From Sphingomonadales bacterium (lineage in GTDB: Bacteria; Pseudomonadota; Alphaproteobacteria; Sphingomonadales; Sphingomonadaceae), in contig JAIVIZ010000086.1 of the NCBI GenBank assembly GCA_020200315.1, positions 1 to 37,203 on the forward strand: a stretch of DNA of 37,203 nt, in the 5' to 3' direction. The notes under the pieces are model-generated. The model was not told where the DNA came from. It saw only the letters and a program-made list of their open reading frames with translations, and made no database searches. Each line of letters begins with the position of its first letter. Within the stretch, counting starts at the first letter, position 1. This document shows, in pieces, positions 5,092-32,189 of this stretch. The position numbers and the translations under genes were made by a program.

Positions 5092-6336
5092 TTGCCGGCA
5101 TTGATCGACCGATATCTGGCCCGCACCATCGCCGTTCCGCTGATCGGAACGCTGGTGCTCGCGTCGATGCTGTTCGTGCTCGACAAGATGCTGAAGCTGT
5201 TCAGCTTCGTGATCGACGCGGGCGGGCCGGTGAAGGTCGTGTGGCAGATGCTCGCCAACCTGCTTCCGGAATATTTCTCGCTCGGCATTCCGATCGGGCT
5301 TCTGCTCGGAATCCTTCTCGCCTTCCGCAAGCTCGCGACCTCGTCCGAGCTCGATGCCTTGCGAGGCAGCGGCGTCGGCTATGGCCGCCTGCTGCGCGTG
5401 CCCTACATCTTTGCCATTGGATTGACGCTGCTCAATCTGGCGATCGTCGGTTATATCGAGCCGTGGGCGCGCTACCGCTACGAGCGGCTGCGCTTCGACC
5501 TCACCTCCGGCGCGCTGGGTGCCGCGATCAAGGTCGGCGAGTTCAATCGGCTGGGCAAACGGATGACGCTGCGAATCGAGCGCAGCGACCACGACGGCAC
5601 GCAGCTCAAGGGCATTTTCCTTCAGGTCGACGACAAGCCGGGATCGACCGTTGCGGCGACCGCGGCGGAAGGGCGGTTCCTCGCCACCGACGATCCCAAC
5701 ACGATCCTCTTCCGCCTCAAGAAGGGCCGCCTCATCCAACAGATGGACAAGTTCGCCGCGCCGCGAAGCCTCGCCTTCGACAGCTACGACCTGCCGATCA
5801 GCCTGCCGGCGATCGACAAGTTCCGGGGGCGCGGCAAGGACGAAGACGAACTGACGCTGATCGAGGTGCTGAAGCGCGGATACGGTCCGGGCGGACCGTT
5901 CAATCGCGACCCCGCACAGGCCAATGCCAATTACCGCCTAGTTGAGGCGCTGATGATGCTGGTGCTGCCGCTGCTCGCGGTTGCCCTGGCCGTCCCGCCC
6001 AAGCGGAGCACTTCATCGTTGGGCATCTTCGTCGCGATCGTAATGGTCGTCACCTACCACAAGATCAATCAATATGGGGAGCAGATGGGGGCGCAGGGCC
6101 GGCTCGATCCATTGCTCGCGCTGTGGGGCCCGTTCCTCCTTCTGTTCTCGCTGATCCTGTGGATGTATCACGTCGTTGCGCATCGTCCCGGCGGTCAGCC
6201 GATCGGCGCGCTCGAGCGCTTCTTCGCCAAAATCAGCAAGTCGGTCCGGCGCCTGTTCAAACGGCGCTTCCGTGGTCTGAACGGAACGCAAGCCGACGAG
6301 GACGAGGATGAAGGCACAACGGCAGTGCCGGCATGA
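5092..6336 (+). CDS. lptF: LPS export ABC transporter permease LptF
   Basis: This 414-residue inner-membrane protein is of the LptF/LptG (YjgP/YjgQ) family. It shows paired N-terminal membrane helices (IAVPLIGTLVLASMLFVLDKM), the conserved PEYFSLGIPIGLLLGILLAF segment, the coupling motif ELDALRGSGV, a periplasmic jellyroll of roughly 150 residues, and a C-terminal block of three helices with the conserved PPKRSTSSLGIF region. With LptG and the ATPase LptB it extracts lipopolysaccharide from the inner membrane. A second TTG lies nine bases downstream. No ATG is in frame near the start, so TTG initiation at 5092 is the best call but not certain. The stop overlaps the lptG start by four bases (ATGA). 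The C-terminus has a cytoplasmic basic patch followed by a run of acidic residues. Confidence 0.93.
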   Translation: MPALIDRYLARTIAVPLIGTLVLASMLFVLDKMLKLFSFVIDAGGPVKVVWQMLANLLPEYFSLGIPIGLLLGILLAFRKLATSSELDALRGSGVGYGRLLRVPYIFAIGLTLLNLAIVGYIEPWARYRYERLRFDLTSGALGAAIKVGEFNRLGKRMTLRIERSDHDGTQLKGIFLQVDDKPGSTVAATAAEGRFLATDDPNTILFRLKKGRLIQQMDKFAAPRSLAFDSYDLPISLPAIDKFRGRGKDEDELTLIEVLKRGYGPGGPFNRDPAQANANYRLVEALMMLVLPLLAVALAVPPKRSTSSLGIFVAIVMVVTYHKINQYGEQMGAQGRLDPLLALWGPFLLLFSLILWMYHVVAHRPGGQPIGALERFFAKISKSVRRLFKRRFRGLNGTQADEDEDEGTTAVPA

Positions 6337-7442
6337 TCAACTTCGACTTCATGCCCTCGGCCCCGATCGCGCGCTACACGGCGAAACTGTTCCTGACGCG
6401 CACGCTTGCCGTGCTCGCGAGCCTCGCGCTCATCCTGATGACGCTCGATCTTCTCGGTGAGAGCGGCAAAATCCTTGCGGTACCCGGCAATGGTCAGGCG
6501 CAGCTCGGGCATTATGTCGTGCTCCGCATCCCGCAGCTGATCTCGCGATTCCTGCCGTTCTCGGCGCTGCTCGGCACGCTGATCGCCTTCGCCGGCCTCA
6601 ATGCCAACAGCGAGGTCATCGCGATGAAGGCCGCGGGCGTCTCCGCTCACCAGATCCTGGCTCCGTTGATCATCGCCAGCTTCGGCGTCGCGGTGGCGAC
6701 TTTCGCCTTCAACGAGACGGTGGTGGTCCATTCCACAGTGGCGCTAAGTGCATGGGAAGATGCCGATTACCATGCCATCCCGCCTGAGAGCGGGGTGTTG
6801 AGCAACATCTGGCTGCTCGATGGCGACGACCTCATCCGCGCGCGCCACGTCGGAGGATCGGGACGGGGTCTGCACCTCGAGCGGGTCACGGTTTACGAGC
6901 GCGATCATGGAACCCTGCAGCGGACGATCGACATCGCCCGTGCGGACCAGTTGCCAGGCGGCGGCGAGCAGGGCTGGCGGCTGAAGGGCGTGCGGACCTA
7001 CGACGCGGCGATGAACCTCGTCAGCGTTCAGCCGGAAGCGATCGGCTTCAGGGGTGTCAGCCGAGTGCGCTTCACCCTGGCCAAGGTCGACCCGACCGAG
7101 CAGGATTTTCCGACGTTGCGCCACTCGATCGCCGAGCTGGAGGCGGCGGGGCGTCCGACCGAGGAGGCACGCGCCGGCCTATGGCACAAAATCGCCGCGC
7201 CGTTGTCGACGATGCTGATGCCGCTGCTGGCCGCGATCGCGGCCTTCGGCCTCGCCCGCTCCGGCCAGGTGCTGCTCCGCGCCTGTGTGGGTATGGCGCT
7301 CGGCTTCGCCTATTTCGTGGTCGACAATTTCAGCTTGGCGATGGGCAATGTCGGCATCTACCCACCGTTCCTTGCCGCTTGGGCGCCCTTCCTGCTGTTC
7401 CTGCTGATCGGTGAAACCGTCCTCATCCGCAGCGAAGAATAG
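6333..7442 (+). CDS. lptG: LPS export ABC transporter permease LptG
   Basis: This 369-residue partner of LptF is translated from an ATG overlapping the lptF stop. It has the family layout: N-terminal helix (TLAVLASLALILMTLDLLGE), the segment PQLISRFLPFSALLGTLIAF, the coupling-helix motif NANSEVIAMKAAGVSAHQI that contacts LptB, a periplasmic beta-jellyroll at about residues 140-260, and the C-terminal helices with AAPLSTMLMPLLAAIAAFG. Together with LptF it forms the transmembrane part of the Lpt LPS extractor. LptB is not in the window. LptF and LptG are told apart by order (F before G) and by the longer periplasmic region and shorter tail here. The stop codon overlaps the -35 element of the predicted stress promoter. 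Confidence 0.93.
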   Translation: MINFDFMPSAPIARYTAKLFLTRTLAVLASLALILMTLDLLGESGKILAVPGNGQAQLGHYVVLRIPQLISRFLPFSALLGTLIAFAGLNANSEVIAMKAAGVSAHQILAPLIIASFGVAVATFAFNETVVVHSTVALSAWEDADYHAIPPESGVLSNIWLLDGDDLIRARHVGGSGRGLHLERVTVYERDHGTLQRTIDIARADQLPGGGEQGWRLKGVRTYDAAMNLVSVQPEAIGFRGVSRVRFTLAKVDPTEQDFPTLRHSIAELEAAGRPTEEARAGLWHKIAAPLSTMLMPLLAAIAAFGLARSGQVLLRACVGMALGFAYFVVDNFSLAMGNVGIYPPFLAAWAPFLLFLLIGETVLIRSEE

Positions 7443-7782: not shown

Positions 7783-8552
7783 TCCATCAGCTCAATCCAG
7801 ACTGGCGCATGATCGCTGGTCTTTTCCCATCCCCGCACATCGCGGTCGACGCCGGCGGACTTCAAACGGGCAGCAATCGCCGGGCCGAGCAGCAAATGGT
7901 CGATCCTGAGGCCCGCGTTGCGCTCGTACGCCCGGCGAAAATAGTCCCAGAAAGTGTAGATCGTCGCGCCCGGATTGAGATGGCGCAGCGCGTCGGTCCA
8001 GCCCTGCGCCACCAGCCGCGCATAGGCCGCGCGCACCTCCGGCGCGAACAGCGCATCCTCGAGCCATCGCTCCGGCTTGTAGACGTCGAGTTCGGTCGGC
8101 ATGACATTGTAGTCGCCGGCGAGGATCACCGGCGCACCGCTGTCGAGCAAGCTCGCGGCATGGCGGATCAGCGCCTCGAACCATGCCAGCTTGTAATCGA
8201 ACTTCGGGCCAGGCCGCGGATTGCCATTGGGCAGATAGAGGCCGCCGATCAGGACGCCGCCGACCGCCGCCTCGATGTAGCGGCTGTGCATAGGTTCGGG
8301 ATCGTCGGGCAGGCCCCGTCGCGTTTCTATCGGCGTTCCGATGCGACTGAGGATGGCGACGCCGTTCCAGCTCTTCTGGCCATGCCACAGCGCCTCATAA
8401 CCCACGGCCCGAATGGCCTCGACCGGAAATTTCTCGTTGGGAGCCTTCAGTTCCTGCAGGCAGACGATATCGGGCCGCCCCTGTTCAAGCCAGCGCAGGA
8501 GCACGGGCAAGCGTCCGTTGACGCCGTTCACATTGTAGGTGGCAACTTTCAT
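7779..8552 (-). CDS. xth: Exodeoxyribonuclease III (first of two paralogues)
   Basis: This 257-residue enzyme belongs to the exonuclease III/APE1 endonuclease-exonuclease-phosphatase family, which cleaves abasic sites and removes 3' blocks in base excision repair. Catalytic features are visible: N7 in TYNVNG, E34 in CLQELK (same numbering as E. coli ExoIII), the GDYNVMP motif with the catalytic Asp and Asn, RIDHLL, and the C-terminal SDHAP histidine. The ATG is chosen because the conserved fold begins at MKVATYNVNG. The gene follows the desaturase gene on the same strand by 35 bases. Its TAA stop overlaps the TAG of the plus-strand stress gene (TTAG at 7779-7782). A second complete copy lies at 31416-32189. 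Confidence 0.95.
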   Translation of the reverse strand: MKVATYNVNGVNGRLPVLLRWLEQGRPDIVCLQELKAPNEKFPVEAIRAVGYEALWHGQKSWNGVAILSRIGTPIETRRGLPDDPEPMHSRYIEAAVGGVLIGGLYLPNGNPRPGPKFDYKLAWFEALIRHAASLLDSGAPVILAGDYNVMPTELDVYKPERWLEDALFAPEVRAAYARLVAQGWTDALRHLNPGATIYTFWDYFRRAYERNAGLRIDHLLLGPAIAARLKSAGVDRDVRGWEKTSDHAPVWIELMD

Positions 8553-8587
8553 GCGCCCGGCAACGCACCAGTTTGGGGTGAAGTGCC

Positions 8588-25531: not shown

Positions 25532-26821
<1,290 letters not shown>

Positions 26822-26852
26822 GATTGTTCCTTGCAGTTCGACAGCAGAGCTT

Positions 26853-26930: not shown

Positions 26931-28293
26931 TTAGAACCGCAGCGGCACGACCTCGCGAACGCCTTCGAGCTCGCCAAGGGAAGCGACGACGCTCGGCGGC
27001 ACCTCGCCGTCGACGGACACCAGCGCCACCGCCTCGCCGCCCGCATCGCGGCGGCCGAGGTTGAAGGTGGCGATGTTGATCCCCGCTTCGCCGAGCGCGG
27101 TGCCGAGCTTGCCGATGAAGCCCGGCGCGTCGGTGTTGACGATGTAGATCATCGTGCCGTCGAGTTCGGCCTCGACCGCGACTCCGAAGATGTCGACGAG
27201 CCGCGGCGCCTTGTTGCCGAACAGCGTGCCGGCCACGCGGCGCGTGCCGCCGGACGTGCCGACCTCGAGCGCGACGAGCGTGTGGTAATCGCCCTCCCGG
27301 TCGTGGCGCACCTCGCGCACGTCGAGGCCGCGTTCCTTGGCGAGGAAGGGCGCATTGACCATGTTCACCGTCTGCGAATAGGTGCCCATCAGCCCGGCGA
27401 GGACTGCGCCGGTGATCGGCTTCTGGTTGAGCTGCGCCGCCGCGCCCTCGATCTCGACCGCGACCGAGCGGACGTCCTCGCCGACGATCTGGCCGACGAG
27501 TTTCCCGAGCTTCTCCGCAAGCGCCATGTAGGGCTTCAGGCGCGGTGCCTCTTCCGCCGACAGCGAGGGCATGTTGATGGCGTTGGTGACGCCGCCGAGC
27601 AGCAGGAAATCGCTCATCTGCTCGGCCACCTGGATGGCGACATTGACCTGGGCCTCGCTGGTCGAGGCGCCGAGGTGCGGGGTCGAAATGAAGTTGGGCG
27701 TCCCGAATAACGGCGAGGCCTTGGCCGGCTCGGTCTCGAACACGTCGAGCGCCGCGCCGGCAACATGGCCGCTGTCGAGCGCGTCCTTCAGCGCCGCCTC
27801 GTCGATCAGGCCTCCCCGCGCGCAGTTGACAATGCGCACGCCATTTTTCGTCTGTGCAATATTTTCCCGACTCAAAATGTTGCGAGTCTGATCGGTCAGC
27901 GGTGTGTGCAGCGTGATGAAGTCGGCGCGGGCGAGCAGCGCATCGAGCTCGACCTTCTCGATTCCAAGGTCGATCGCCCGTTCCGGCGTCAGGAAGGGAT
28001 CGAACGCCACGACTTTCATTTTGAGACCGAGCGCCCGCGCGGCGACGATCGAGCCGATGTTGCCCGCGCCGATCAGGCCGAGCGTCTTGCCGGTGACCTC
28101 GACGCCCATGAAGCGGTTCTTCTGCCACTTGCCGGCTTGGGTCGAGGCGTCGGCCTCGGGCAGCTGGCGAGCGAGCGCGAAGATCAAGGCGATGGCGTGT
28201 TCGGCGGTGGTGATCGAATTGCCGAACGCGCTGGCGAAAAATCACCGCCGCCTGCGGGTCCATTTGGTCGGAAATGAGCACTTTGGAGGTCAT
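26931..28293 (-). pseudogene. serA: D-3-phosphoglycerate dehydrogenase, N-terminal deletion and frameshift
   Basis: SerA oxidises 3-phosphoglycerate in the first step of serine synthesis. The gene starts with ATG at 28293 and encodes MTSKVLISDQMDPQAAVIF, a normal SerA N-terminus. It then jumps to FGNSITTAEHAIALIFALARQ in another frame, which in intact enzymes begins near residue 100. About 80 codons are missing, including the IRS-type substrate motif. Removing one T from the TTTTT run at the junction would join the parts in frame. The rest is intact from about 28250 to 26931: NAD loop GLIGAGNIGS, NCARGG with the catalytic arginine, STPHLGAST with the catalytic histidine, an intervening domain and a C-terminal ACT domain. 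The longest uninterrupted frame begins at a TTG (28187) and gives 418 residues. This is either a damaged gene, a locally misassembled one, or one backed by another serA. Confidence 0.85.
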
Positions 28294-28303
28294 GTTCTTT
28301 CCT

Positions 28304-28445
28304 AGCCCCTCTCCCCTTCGCGGGAGAGGGAGGGAGCCGCCGCCGACGGTGAAAGGGAGAGGGGACGGTGGAGAGGTTCAGCCCCTCTCCCCGCTCGCGC
28401 GTTGCGCGAGTCGACCCTCCCCCGCGAGGGGGGAGGGTTGCCGCG
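28304..28445. repeat. GC-rich palindromic repeats, family C, overlapping the 3' end of serC
   Basis: Two units are seen. One is CCCCTCTCCC..CGGGAGAGGG near 28305-28331 with its echo GGGAGAGGGG near 28354-28364. The other spans about 28381-28440, with CGCGCGTTGCGCGAG in the middle and CCCTCCCCC..GGGGGGAGGG at its end. The second unit lies inside the serC reading frame. Confidence 0.75.
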
Positions 28446-29553
28446 ACGCCCACGCCCAATCGAGCCAGGGGCCAAGCGCCTCGATGTCGGCCGTGTCGAC
28501 CGTAGCCCCGCACCAGATGCGCAGGCCCGGCGGGGCGTCGCGGTAGCTGGCGATGTCATACGCGGCGCCTTCGGCTTCGAGCAGGCCGACGAAGCGCTTG
28601 ATCATCGCCTCGTCGGCGCCCTCGACGGTCAGACAGACGCTGGTGGTCGAGCGGATCGCCGGATCCTGCGCGAGATGGCCGAGCCACGGGCGCGCGTCGA
28701 TGATCGTGTTCAGCGCCGACGCATTCGCATTGCTACGGGCAATGAGAGCGTCAGCGCCGCCGATCGACTTCGCCCATTCGAGCGCGAAGATCGCGTCCTC
28801 GACCGCGAGCATCGAGGGCGTGTTGATCGTCTCGCCTCTGAACACGCCGTCGTTGAGCTTGCCGCTCGACGTCAGGCGGAACAGCTTCGGCAACGGCCGG
28901 TCGGGAACATAGGTCTCCAGCCGCTCGGCCGCGCGCGGGCCGAGGATCAGCACGCCGTGCGCCCCCTCCCCGCCGAGCACCTTTTGCCACGAGAAGGTCG
29001 CGACATCGATCCTGTCCCACGGCAGGTCGTAGGCGAACACCGCGCTGGTAGCATCGGCGAAGCTCAGGCCCGCTCGATCGGGCGCGATCCAATTGCCGTT
29101 CGGCACGCGCACGCCGGAGGTGGTGCCGTTCCAGGTGAACAGCACGTCATTGCGCCAGTCGACCGATGCGACGTCGGGAATGTGGCCATAGTCGGCACGA
29201 ATGACGGTTGGATCGAGCTTAAGCTGTTTGACCGTGTCCGTGACCCAGCCTTCGCCGAAGCTCTCCCACGCCAGCACGGTGACCGGCCGTGCGCCAAGCA
29301 TGGTCCACATCGCCATCTCGAACGCGCCGGTATCGGACCCCGGGACAATGCCGATGCGGTGAGTGTCGGGAAGCTGCAACAGCTCGCGCATCAGGTCGAT
29401 GCAATATTGCAGCCGCGCCTTGCCGAGCTTCGATCGGTGCGATCGGCCGAGACTGTCGGTAGCGAGTTTCGCAGCGCTCCAGCCCGGAGGCTTGGCGCAG
29501 GGGCCGGACGAGAAATATGGGCGCGCCGGCAGCGCCTTCGGCTTGTTCAACAC
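28378..29553 (-). CDS. serC: Phosphoserine aminotransferase
   Basis: This 391-residue PLP enzyme converts 3-phosphohydroxypyruvate to phosphoserine. FSSGPCAKPPGWS at the N-terminus, GSDTGAFEMAMW, and the PLP lysine K191 in FSWQKVLGGEGAHG identify it as the SerC branch common in alphaproteobacteria; FRGETINTPSM follows. The start is GTG at 29553, with AGGAG seven bases upstream; TTG at 29550 is the alternative. The conserved protein ends near LDWAWASR. The last 20 or so residues (from QPSPLAGEG to GERG) are translated from a palindromic repeat. It precedes serA on the same strand, so serC-serA form a serine operon. Confidence 0.93.
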   Translation of the reverse strand: MLNKPKALPARPYFSSGPCAKPPGWSAAKLATDSLGRSHRSKLGKARLQYCIDLMRELLQLPDTHRIGIVPGSDTGAFEMAMWTMLGARPVTVLAWESFGEGWVTDTVKQLKLDPTVIRADYGHIPDVASVDWRNDVLFTWNGTTSGVRVPNGNWIAPDRAGLSFADATSAVFAYDLPWDRIDVATFSWQKVLGGEGAHGVLILGPRAAERLETYVPDRPLPKLFRLTSSGKLNDGVFRGETINTPSMLAVEDAIFALEWAKSIGGADALIARSNANASALNTIIDARPWLGHLAQDPAIRSTTSVCLTVEGADEAMIKRFVGLLEAEGAAYDIASYRDAPPGLRIWCGATVDTADIEALGPWLDWAWASRQPSPLAGEGRLAQRASGERG

Positions 29554-29891
29554 TCTAACTCTCCTCGCAGAGAGCACGCGCCGCGTTGGGACGGCGTGGC
29601 CCGTCGCCGTGCATAGAGATTGTGCAATGCAGCGCAAGCGATAGTCGGTTGAACTCAGCTGGAAGTCGCGTTCGAGCAAGCAAAAGAACGGTTCACCGCA
29701 GGGTAATGGCGGCTCACCCCGGCAATGGGAACGAAAGGTTGAAATTGTTAACCAACACCGGTCTGTAGTCCATGTCGCTGCCTGGAAGGCAAATCTAGGC
29801 GATGACGACGGGGCTGGGGAGCTCCTTGTTATTTGGGATGTATCCGACGGCGCGCGAATGTGCGCGGCCGGACAGAGGAGCTTTACGGCCC
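29554..29891. other. Intergenic region between serC and the M23 peptidase gene
   Basis: These 338 bases hold no convincing gene. The region carries the divergent promoters of serC (left) and the M23 peptidase (right) and a PhaR-like site at 29620-29634. A ribosome site GAGGAG lies about 11 bases before the peptidase ATG. A TTGAAA at about 29739 could be a -35 element, but no good -10 follows at the right distance. Confidence 0.5.
29620..29634 (+). promoter_or_regulatory. PhaR-like operator, single copy
   Basis: TTGTGCAATGCAGCG matches the two phasin-upstream sites (TTGTGCAGTGCAGCA and TTGTGCACTGCAGCA) at 13 of 15 positions. It lies 67 bases upstream of serC. The similarity is seen directly; binding by a PHA repressor is inferred. 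Confidence 0.45.
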
Positions 29892-31334: not shown

Positions 31335-31401
31335 CCGTTCGTGTCGAGCGAAGTCGAGACACGCTCTCCCCTGTTCCCTCGACTTCGCTCGGGGCGAACG
31401 G
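31335..31401. repeat. Palindromic intergenic repeat, family B
   Basis: The element opens with CCGTTCG and the inner arm GTCGAGCGAAGTCGAG, and closes with CTCGACTTCGCTCG and CGAACGG. The arms pair over most of 67 bases. It fills the gap between erpA and the second xth gene, so it may act as an RNA hairpin between them. Only one copy is in the window. Confidence 0.8.
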
Positions 31402-31415
31402 TTAGGGGGAACGCG

Positions 31416-32189
31416 ATGAAACTCGCGACCTACAACGTCAACGGCATCCGCGCCCGTCTGCCGCGCCTGATCGAGTGGCTGGAGCGCGAAGCGCCCGATG
31501 TCGTCTGCCTGCAGGAGCTGAAGTGCGCCGACGAGGCGCTGCCGATCGCGGACATTGAAGCCGCCGGCTATGGCACCGTCTGGCACGGGCAAAAGGGGTT
31601 CAACGGAGTCGCCATTCTCGCCCGGGGTGACGCGCCCGAGCTGCGCCGCATCGGCCTGCCGGGCGATCCCGACGACAGCCATTCGCGCTATATCGAGGCG
31701 GAGGTCGGCGGGATTGTGATCGCCTCGCTGTACCTGCCCAACGGCAATCCGATCGGGACCGAAAAATTTGCGTACAAGCTGGCCTGGATGGAGCGCCTCC
31801 GAAGCCATGCCGCGACCCTTCTCGCGGAGGAAAAGCCGACCGTGCTGGCCGGCGACTGGAACGTCATTCCGGAAGATCGCGATGTCTTCTCCGCCCGCGC
31901 GGTCGCCAAGGACGCGCTGATTCAGCCGGAGACCCGCGCCGCCTATCGCACCATCGTCTATCAGGGCTGGACCGACGCACTTCGCGCGCTGCATCCCGAC
32001 AACGACAAATTGTGGACCTTCTGGGATTACACGATGGGCGCGTGGCAGCGCGACCTCGGCTTCCGCATCGATCATCTGCTGTGCTCAGCCCAGGCCACCG
32101 ACCGGCTGCGCGGCGCCGGCGTCGATCGCTGGGCACGGGGCGAGGAAAAAGCCAGCGACCACGCGCCGACGTGGGTGGAGCTCGACTAG
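31416..32189 (+). CDS. xth: Exodeoxyribonuclease III (second paralogue)
   Basis: This is a second full-length 257-residue exonuclease III-family enzyme. It has N7 in TYNVNG, E34 in CLQELK, GDWNVIP with the catalytic Asp and Asn, RIDHLL, and C-terminal SDHAP. It is clearly related to the copy at 7779-8552 but differs at many positions, for example GFNGVAIL against SWNGVAIL. This indicates an old duplication, or separate clades, rather than a recent copy. The ATG at 31416 follows AGGGGGAACGCG. The upstream in-frame extension is translated repeat DNA and is not part of the protein. The stop is followed by a family A repeat. Confidence 0.95.
   Translation: MKLATYNVNGIRARLPRLIEWLEREAPDVVCLQELKCADEALPIADIEAAGYGTVWHGQKGFNGVAILARGDAPELRRIGLPGDPDDSHSRYIEAEVGGIVIASLYLPNGNPIGTEKFAYKLAWMERLRSHAATLLAEEKPTVLAGDWNVIPEDRDVFSARAVAKDALIQPETRAAYRTIVYQGWTDALRALHPDNDKLWTFWDYTMGAWQRDLGFRIDHLLCSAQATDRLRGAGVDRWARGEEKASDHAPTWVELD

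What the first reader, a model, noticed from the sequence alone, without database searches (positions are those of the whole stretch)
28187..28293. serA missing about 80 codons near its start, plus a frameshift at a T5 run
A normal SerA N-terminus (MTSKVLISDQMDPQAAVIF) is followed at once by FGNSITTAEHA from roughly residue 100, one frame off. Deleting one T restores a joined frame lacking the substrate-binding part. Serine synthesis is usually essential on minimal medium, so either another serA exists, the cell is a serine auxotroph, or the assembly is wrong here.
Basis: partly seen in the sequence, partly recalled or inferred. Interest (0 to 1): 0.62.

Follow-up and report, generated by a model that had tools for sequence, protein, structure and literature searches.

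The report
serA gap, probably an assembly error
The serine-synthesis gene serA reads as broken here, with 218 bases missing near its start, but other basic genes in the same draft genome have similar clean gaps, so this is most likely a sequence-assembly mistake and not a bacterium that cannot make serine.

Summary
serA (minus strand, start codon at 28293) runs from a normal 22-codon start straight into FGNSITTAEHA, one frame off. Against relatives 218 nt are missing (about 73 codons, not 80). The frame change follows from that length; the T5 run is an ordinary Ile-Phe (ATT-TTT), not a second lesion.

The held draft (2.18 Mb, 202 contigs, 86.94% complete) shows no second serA and no copy of the lost piece. 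The remaining 430 codons are open and as constrained as in relatives.

Similar clean internal deletions occur in gltX (206 nt), an RNase E/G gene (115 nt), a phaZ-like gene (279 nt) and glyA (168 nt). Among sampled genes, 4 of 82 in this genome show one, against 0 of 104 in near-complete relatives and 0 of 44 in fragmented ones.

A cell with serA, glyA, a glutamyl-tRNA synthetase and RNase E all broken is implausible. No reads were available, so a real, very recent deletion is not excluded.

The parts
28228..28293 (-). serA start: 22 codons, MTSKVLISDQMDPQAAVIFRQR, homologous to residues 1-22 of the G024 protein
   Evidence: 77% identical to G024 over residues 1-22
28225..28229 (-). deletion junction (about 2 bp ambiguous): left flank ...CGCCAGCGCG meets right flank TTCGGCAATTCG; 218 nt present in relatives are missing
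26934..28226 (-). rest of serA, 430 codons, open: NAD-binding domain, intervening domain, ACT domain
   Evidence: TIGR01327, 535.9 bits, profile 94-521 of 525; PF02826, PF19304, PF01842
28237..28243 (-). the T5 run and its neighbours (ATTTTTC), ordinary Ile-Phe codons; not a separate lesion
28447..29616 (-). serC, phosphoserine transaminase, whole, just upstream of serA
   Evidence: TIGR01365, 565.5 bits, cut-off 448.2, profile 2-372 of 374
25535..26848 (-). purA, adenylosuccinate synthase, whole, just downstream of serA
   Evidence: NF002223, 625.4 bits, cut-off 402

Best explanation
The 218-nt gap in serA is most likely a local assembly error in a draft genome: two contigs or graph ends that flank an unassembled stretch of about 0.1-0.3 kb were joined end to end without the sequence between them. 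Shown: the gap, its size, its abrupt junction, and four similar gaps in other conserved genes of the same assembly. Inferred: that the joining was done by software (scaffolding, gap closing or path resolution) and that the organism itself carries an ordinary intact serA.
For: (1) Four of 82 sampled genes of this genome have a clean internal deletion (flanks adjacent, 115-279 nt missing): serA, gltX, RNase E/G, phaZ-like; 0 of 104 genes in 28 stretches of eight genomes of 1-10 contigs and 0 of 44 genes in 22 stretches of four fragmented assemblies (gene names). (2) glyA lacks 168 nt against 9 of 9 relatives compared (seen first). (3) Several of these genes are usually indispensable (established knowledge), so all being truly broken is implausible. 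(4) The 430 remaining serA codons are open, and mean pN/pS against relatives is 0.249, against 0.270 (sd 0.075, 105 pairs) among relatives: no sign of an old pseudogene. (5) The lost piece is nowhere else in the held assembly. (6) The assembly has short N runs of 121, 34 and 2 bases in the sample; the 34-N run lies inside alaS where relatives need no extra residues, which suits wrongly sized scaffold joins. (7) In two other drafts of the genus (G005, G079) serA is split over two contigs near this place. (8) Chen et al. 2020 (PMC7111523, passages seen) describe local assembly errors and scaffolding gaps in metagenome-assembled genomes as a source of incomplete or incorrect protein-coding genes.
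Against: No raw reads could be examined. The serA junction carries no N and needs no repeat, and repeat-free joins are not what simple repeat collapse gives. The excess of deletions is modest in number: one-sided Fisher p 0.015, and 0.043 with serA itself left out. The fragmented controls (44 genes) show none, so this is not a general feature of drafts. Lost segments are not unusual in G+C (four genes), and the serA one is no more conserved than the rest of the gene, so no reason for an assembly dropout was found. That the genome is a metagenome assembly is inferred, not stated by any search. N runs can also be stretches withheld by the operators.
Confidence: 0.85

Rival explanations
1. A real, very recent deletion of 218 nt made serA a pseudogene, fixed or common in the sampled population; the cells take up serine or make it another way.
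For: The junction is clean with only about 2 bp of shared sequence, as in illegitimate deletions; no other serA was found. A recent event would leave the body conserved, as seen. A Glu-to-Gln change lies 8 nt left of the junction at a site that is Glu or Asp in the genus relatives read.
Against: glyA, the other common route to serine, is broken in the same clean way, and so are gltX and RNase E/G; serB and serC are whole.
Confidence: 0.1
2. The genome is truly decaying, as in a host-bound bacterium, with many short deletions in housekeeping genes.
For: Five genes with deletions of 115-279 nt.
Against: The rest of each gene aligns well in open frames (67-86% identity per flank), serA constraint is ordinary, the assembly (2.18 Mb at 86.94% completeness) is as large as its relatives, and in the 37-kb window no other gene showed a clean deletion (limited to genes with a counterpart in the fetched relatives).
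Confidence: 0.03
3. The frame change at the T5 run is used: ribosomes slip there and make a short SerA.
Against: The T5 is an ordinary Ile-Phe pair also seen in whole serA genes; the joined protein would still lack the N-terminal substrate-binding residues, and no relative read in full shows such an arrangement.
Confidence: 0.01

Closest known systems
D-3-phosphoglycerate dehydrogenase SerA (TIGR01327)
   Same: Profile positions 94-521 of 525 match at 535.9 bits, above the 454 cut-off; domain order NAD-binding, intervening, ACT; neighbours serC and purA.
   Different: About 73 codons of the N-terminal substrate-binding part are missing and the frames do not join.
Local assembly errors in metagenome-assembled genomes (Chen et al. 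2020, PMC7111523; abstract and passages seen)
   Same: Wrong or incomplete protein-coding genes at assembly joins; several per draft genome.
   Different: Their test, read support at the join, could not be done here; the passages seen do not describe clean 0.1-0.3 kb losses in particular.

Membership tests
SerA / TIGR01327 | score above the curated cut-off | tested here: met
   535.9 against 454 bits, although positions 1-93 are not matched
SerA / TIGR01327 | complete N-terminal substrate-binding part (PF00389) in one frame with the rest | tested here: not met
   PF00389 only 81-134, 14.3 bits, below 24.6; two frames
Pseudogene | reading frame interrupted in the sequence | tested here: met
Pseudogene | relaxed constraint on the remaining codons | tested here: not met
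   own mean pN/pS 0.249 against 0.270, sd 0.075, among 15 relatives; a very young pseudogene would not show it
Pseudogene | lesion present in the organism's DNA | not testable with these tools
   no reads or second assembly of the species held; the junction was not found in genome contigs, where the own genome may be left out
Local assembly error | no read supports the join | not testable with these tools
   no reads available
Local assembly error | similar lesions in other genes of the same assembly, not in relatives | tested here: met
   4 of 82 against 0 of 104 and 0 of 44; glyA against 9 of 9 relatives
Programmed frameshift | shifted product keeps the functional domains and the site is conserved | tested here: not met
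   lost residues are absent in either frame; relatives read in full have one open frame

The most novel reading that the evidence does not exclude
A free-living bacterium of this genus has really and very recently lost both serA and glyA by clean short deletions while keeping serB and serC, so that it depends on outside serine and glycine; the other broken genes would then also be real and the lineage close to a dead end or kept alive by its community.
Probability: 0.04. Interest if true: 0.5.

Novelty: not a real feature. Interest (0 to 1): 0.08.

Why it matters
If the reading is right, the finding is a caution: metabolic models built on this draft would call a false serine (and glycine) auxotrophy, and the same assembly carries more such false gaps in essential genes. 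If the deletion were real, it would be an unusual case of serine dependence arising in a genus whose other members read here keep serA.

Tried and rejected
Programmed frameshift at the T5 run: rejected, since the lost residues stay lost in either frame.

Deletion between direct repeats: I first suspected CGCCAGCGCG, which occurs four times in the window, but relatives do not carry it at the right-hand side; only about 2 bp are shared at the junction.

Second serA or the lost piece elsewhere: none found (one search gave only six short matches of at most 54 nt). One search was aimed at the wrong stretch (the part after the gap) and says nothing on this.

G+C dropout or unusual conservation as cause: not supported (four genes for G+C, serA alone for conservation).

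In one search other differences appeared and were not counted as clean deletions: a net -43 nt split in a mutL-like gene (name from memory), two gaps of 41 and 19 residues in a penicillin-binding-protein-like gene (name from memory; 62% identity; contig end), a missing C-terminal part of 104 residues in a recG-like gene (name from memory), and several missing termini in this genome and in the controls alike, many of them likely over-long ORF starts. The controls had splits too (net -37, -19, -2, -1, +1014 nt), but none with adjacent flanks and 25 or more residues missing. The gene counts differ between (94 and 113; 82, 104 and 44) because thresholds and sets differ.

Papers: two searches gave nothing useful (listings only); a third led to PMC7111523, of which I saw the abstract start and passages.

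Full report
What is there. On the minus strand serA starts at 28293 with 22 codons that match the relatives' start and then continues, one frame off, with FGNSITTAEHA. In G024, a one-contig relative, the two flanks of this place lie 218 nt further apart (query 1-67 and 68-594), and the protein comparison also gives net -218. In 32 loci of 28 relatives whose start was printed, the distance from the start used there to the GGCAA motif is 282-297 nt, always a multiple of 3; here it is 70 nt. Of the 24 same-genus relatives fetched, 22 have this N-terminus in one open frame; G010 is off frame and G005 is split over two contigs. The loss is thus about 73 codons. The T5 run is the ordinary Ile-Phe pair, and the frame change follows from 218 not being divisible by 3: one event, not two.

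What is lost and what stays. The remaining 430 codons are open and match TIGR01327 from 94 to 521 of 525 (535.9 bits, cut-off 454), with NAD-binding, intervening and ACT domains. The substrate-binding N-terminal part is missing (PF00389 below cut-off). As written, the gene could not give a working enzyme (established knowledge of D-3-phosphoglycerate dehydrogenase).

Is there another source of serine? In the held 2.18 Mb (202 contigs, 86.94% complete) there is one serA, no other PF00389 match at E up to 1, no match to the lost residues at E up to 10, and only six short DNA matches to the lost 218 nt. serB is present above cut-off and serC whole. glyA was found, but with an internal gap.

The same lesion elsewhere. 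That glyA gap is 168 nt against 9 of 9 relatives compared, computed by hand from the coordinates. I then compared 739 ORFs of G024 (800 kb plus 40 kb) with the window and 40 stretches of the own genome (392,161 non-N bases). Of 82 matched genes, 4 have a clean internal deletion, with flanks adjacent and at least 25 residues missing: serA -218, gltX -206, RNase E/G -115 and a phaZ-like gene -279 nt (names). In 28 stretches of eight relatives with 1-10 contigs there were 0 in 104 genes, and in 22 stretches of four fragmented assemblies 0 in 44 genes. One-sided Fisher p is 0.015, or 0.043 with serA left out because it was the reason for looking. The fragmented control is small and the difference is modest; the weight lies in which genes are hit. 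A second, more distant glutamyl-tRNA synthetase-like gene is whole (38% identity), so the gltX loss alone would not have to be lethal.

Constraint. Over the remaining serA codons the mean pN/pS of this genome against 15 relatives is 0.249; among those relatives it is 0.270, sd 0.075, 105 pairs. G003 and G070 were dropped because their sequence was not caught by the script. The gene was therefore under ordinary selection until very recently, or still is.

Signs of draft joins. The sample has three contigs with short N runs (121, 34 and 2 bases). The 34-N run lies within alaS where the two flanks are adjacent in the relative (identity). Such runs may be scaffold gaps of wrong size; N can also mean withheld sequence. 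In G005 and G079, two other drafts of the genus, serA is split over two contigs near the same place. Junctions share only a few bases, and the lost segments are not unusual in G+C in the four genes measured, so why the joins fell here is not explained.

Verdict. A local assembly or gap-closing error explains the gap, its abrupt join, the ordinary constraint, and the similar gaps in glyA, gltX, RNase E/G and phaZ. Passages of Chen et al. 2020 (PMC7111523) describe such errors as a source of incomplete or incorrect genes in metagenome-assembled genomes. That this genome is one is my inference from its completeness, contig number and N runs. The decisive test, read support at the join, could not be made.

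Noticed in passing
own genome, contig C45, about 6324-7289 (L045, L183): glyA (serine hydroxymethyltransferase) lacks 168 nt in frame, just after the THKT motif, against 9 of 9 relatives compared.
   Followed up: yes
own genome: L065 14050-15265, L129 7875-9538, L134 9190-10137: gltX, RNase E/G and phaZ-like genes have clean internal deletions of 206, 115 and 279 nt.
   Followed up: partly
L018 (G010): The serA N-terminus of this relative lies in another frame than the rest, perhaps a single-base error in that assembly.
   Followed up: no
L022 (G005); G079: serA is split over two contigs in these drafts; in G005 the two pieces overlap in the query, which may reflect mixed strains.
   Followed up: no
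window 28298-28440: The serC-serA spacer holds a GC-rich repeat (CCCTCTCCC...GGGAGAGGG); its first bases also match other contigs of the genome, and the serC frame seems to run on into it.
   Followed up: no
window 7785-8561 and 31392-32186: Two exonuclease III-like genes (name from memory), about 53-58% and 74-79% identical to the same proteins of relatives.
   Followed up: no
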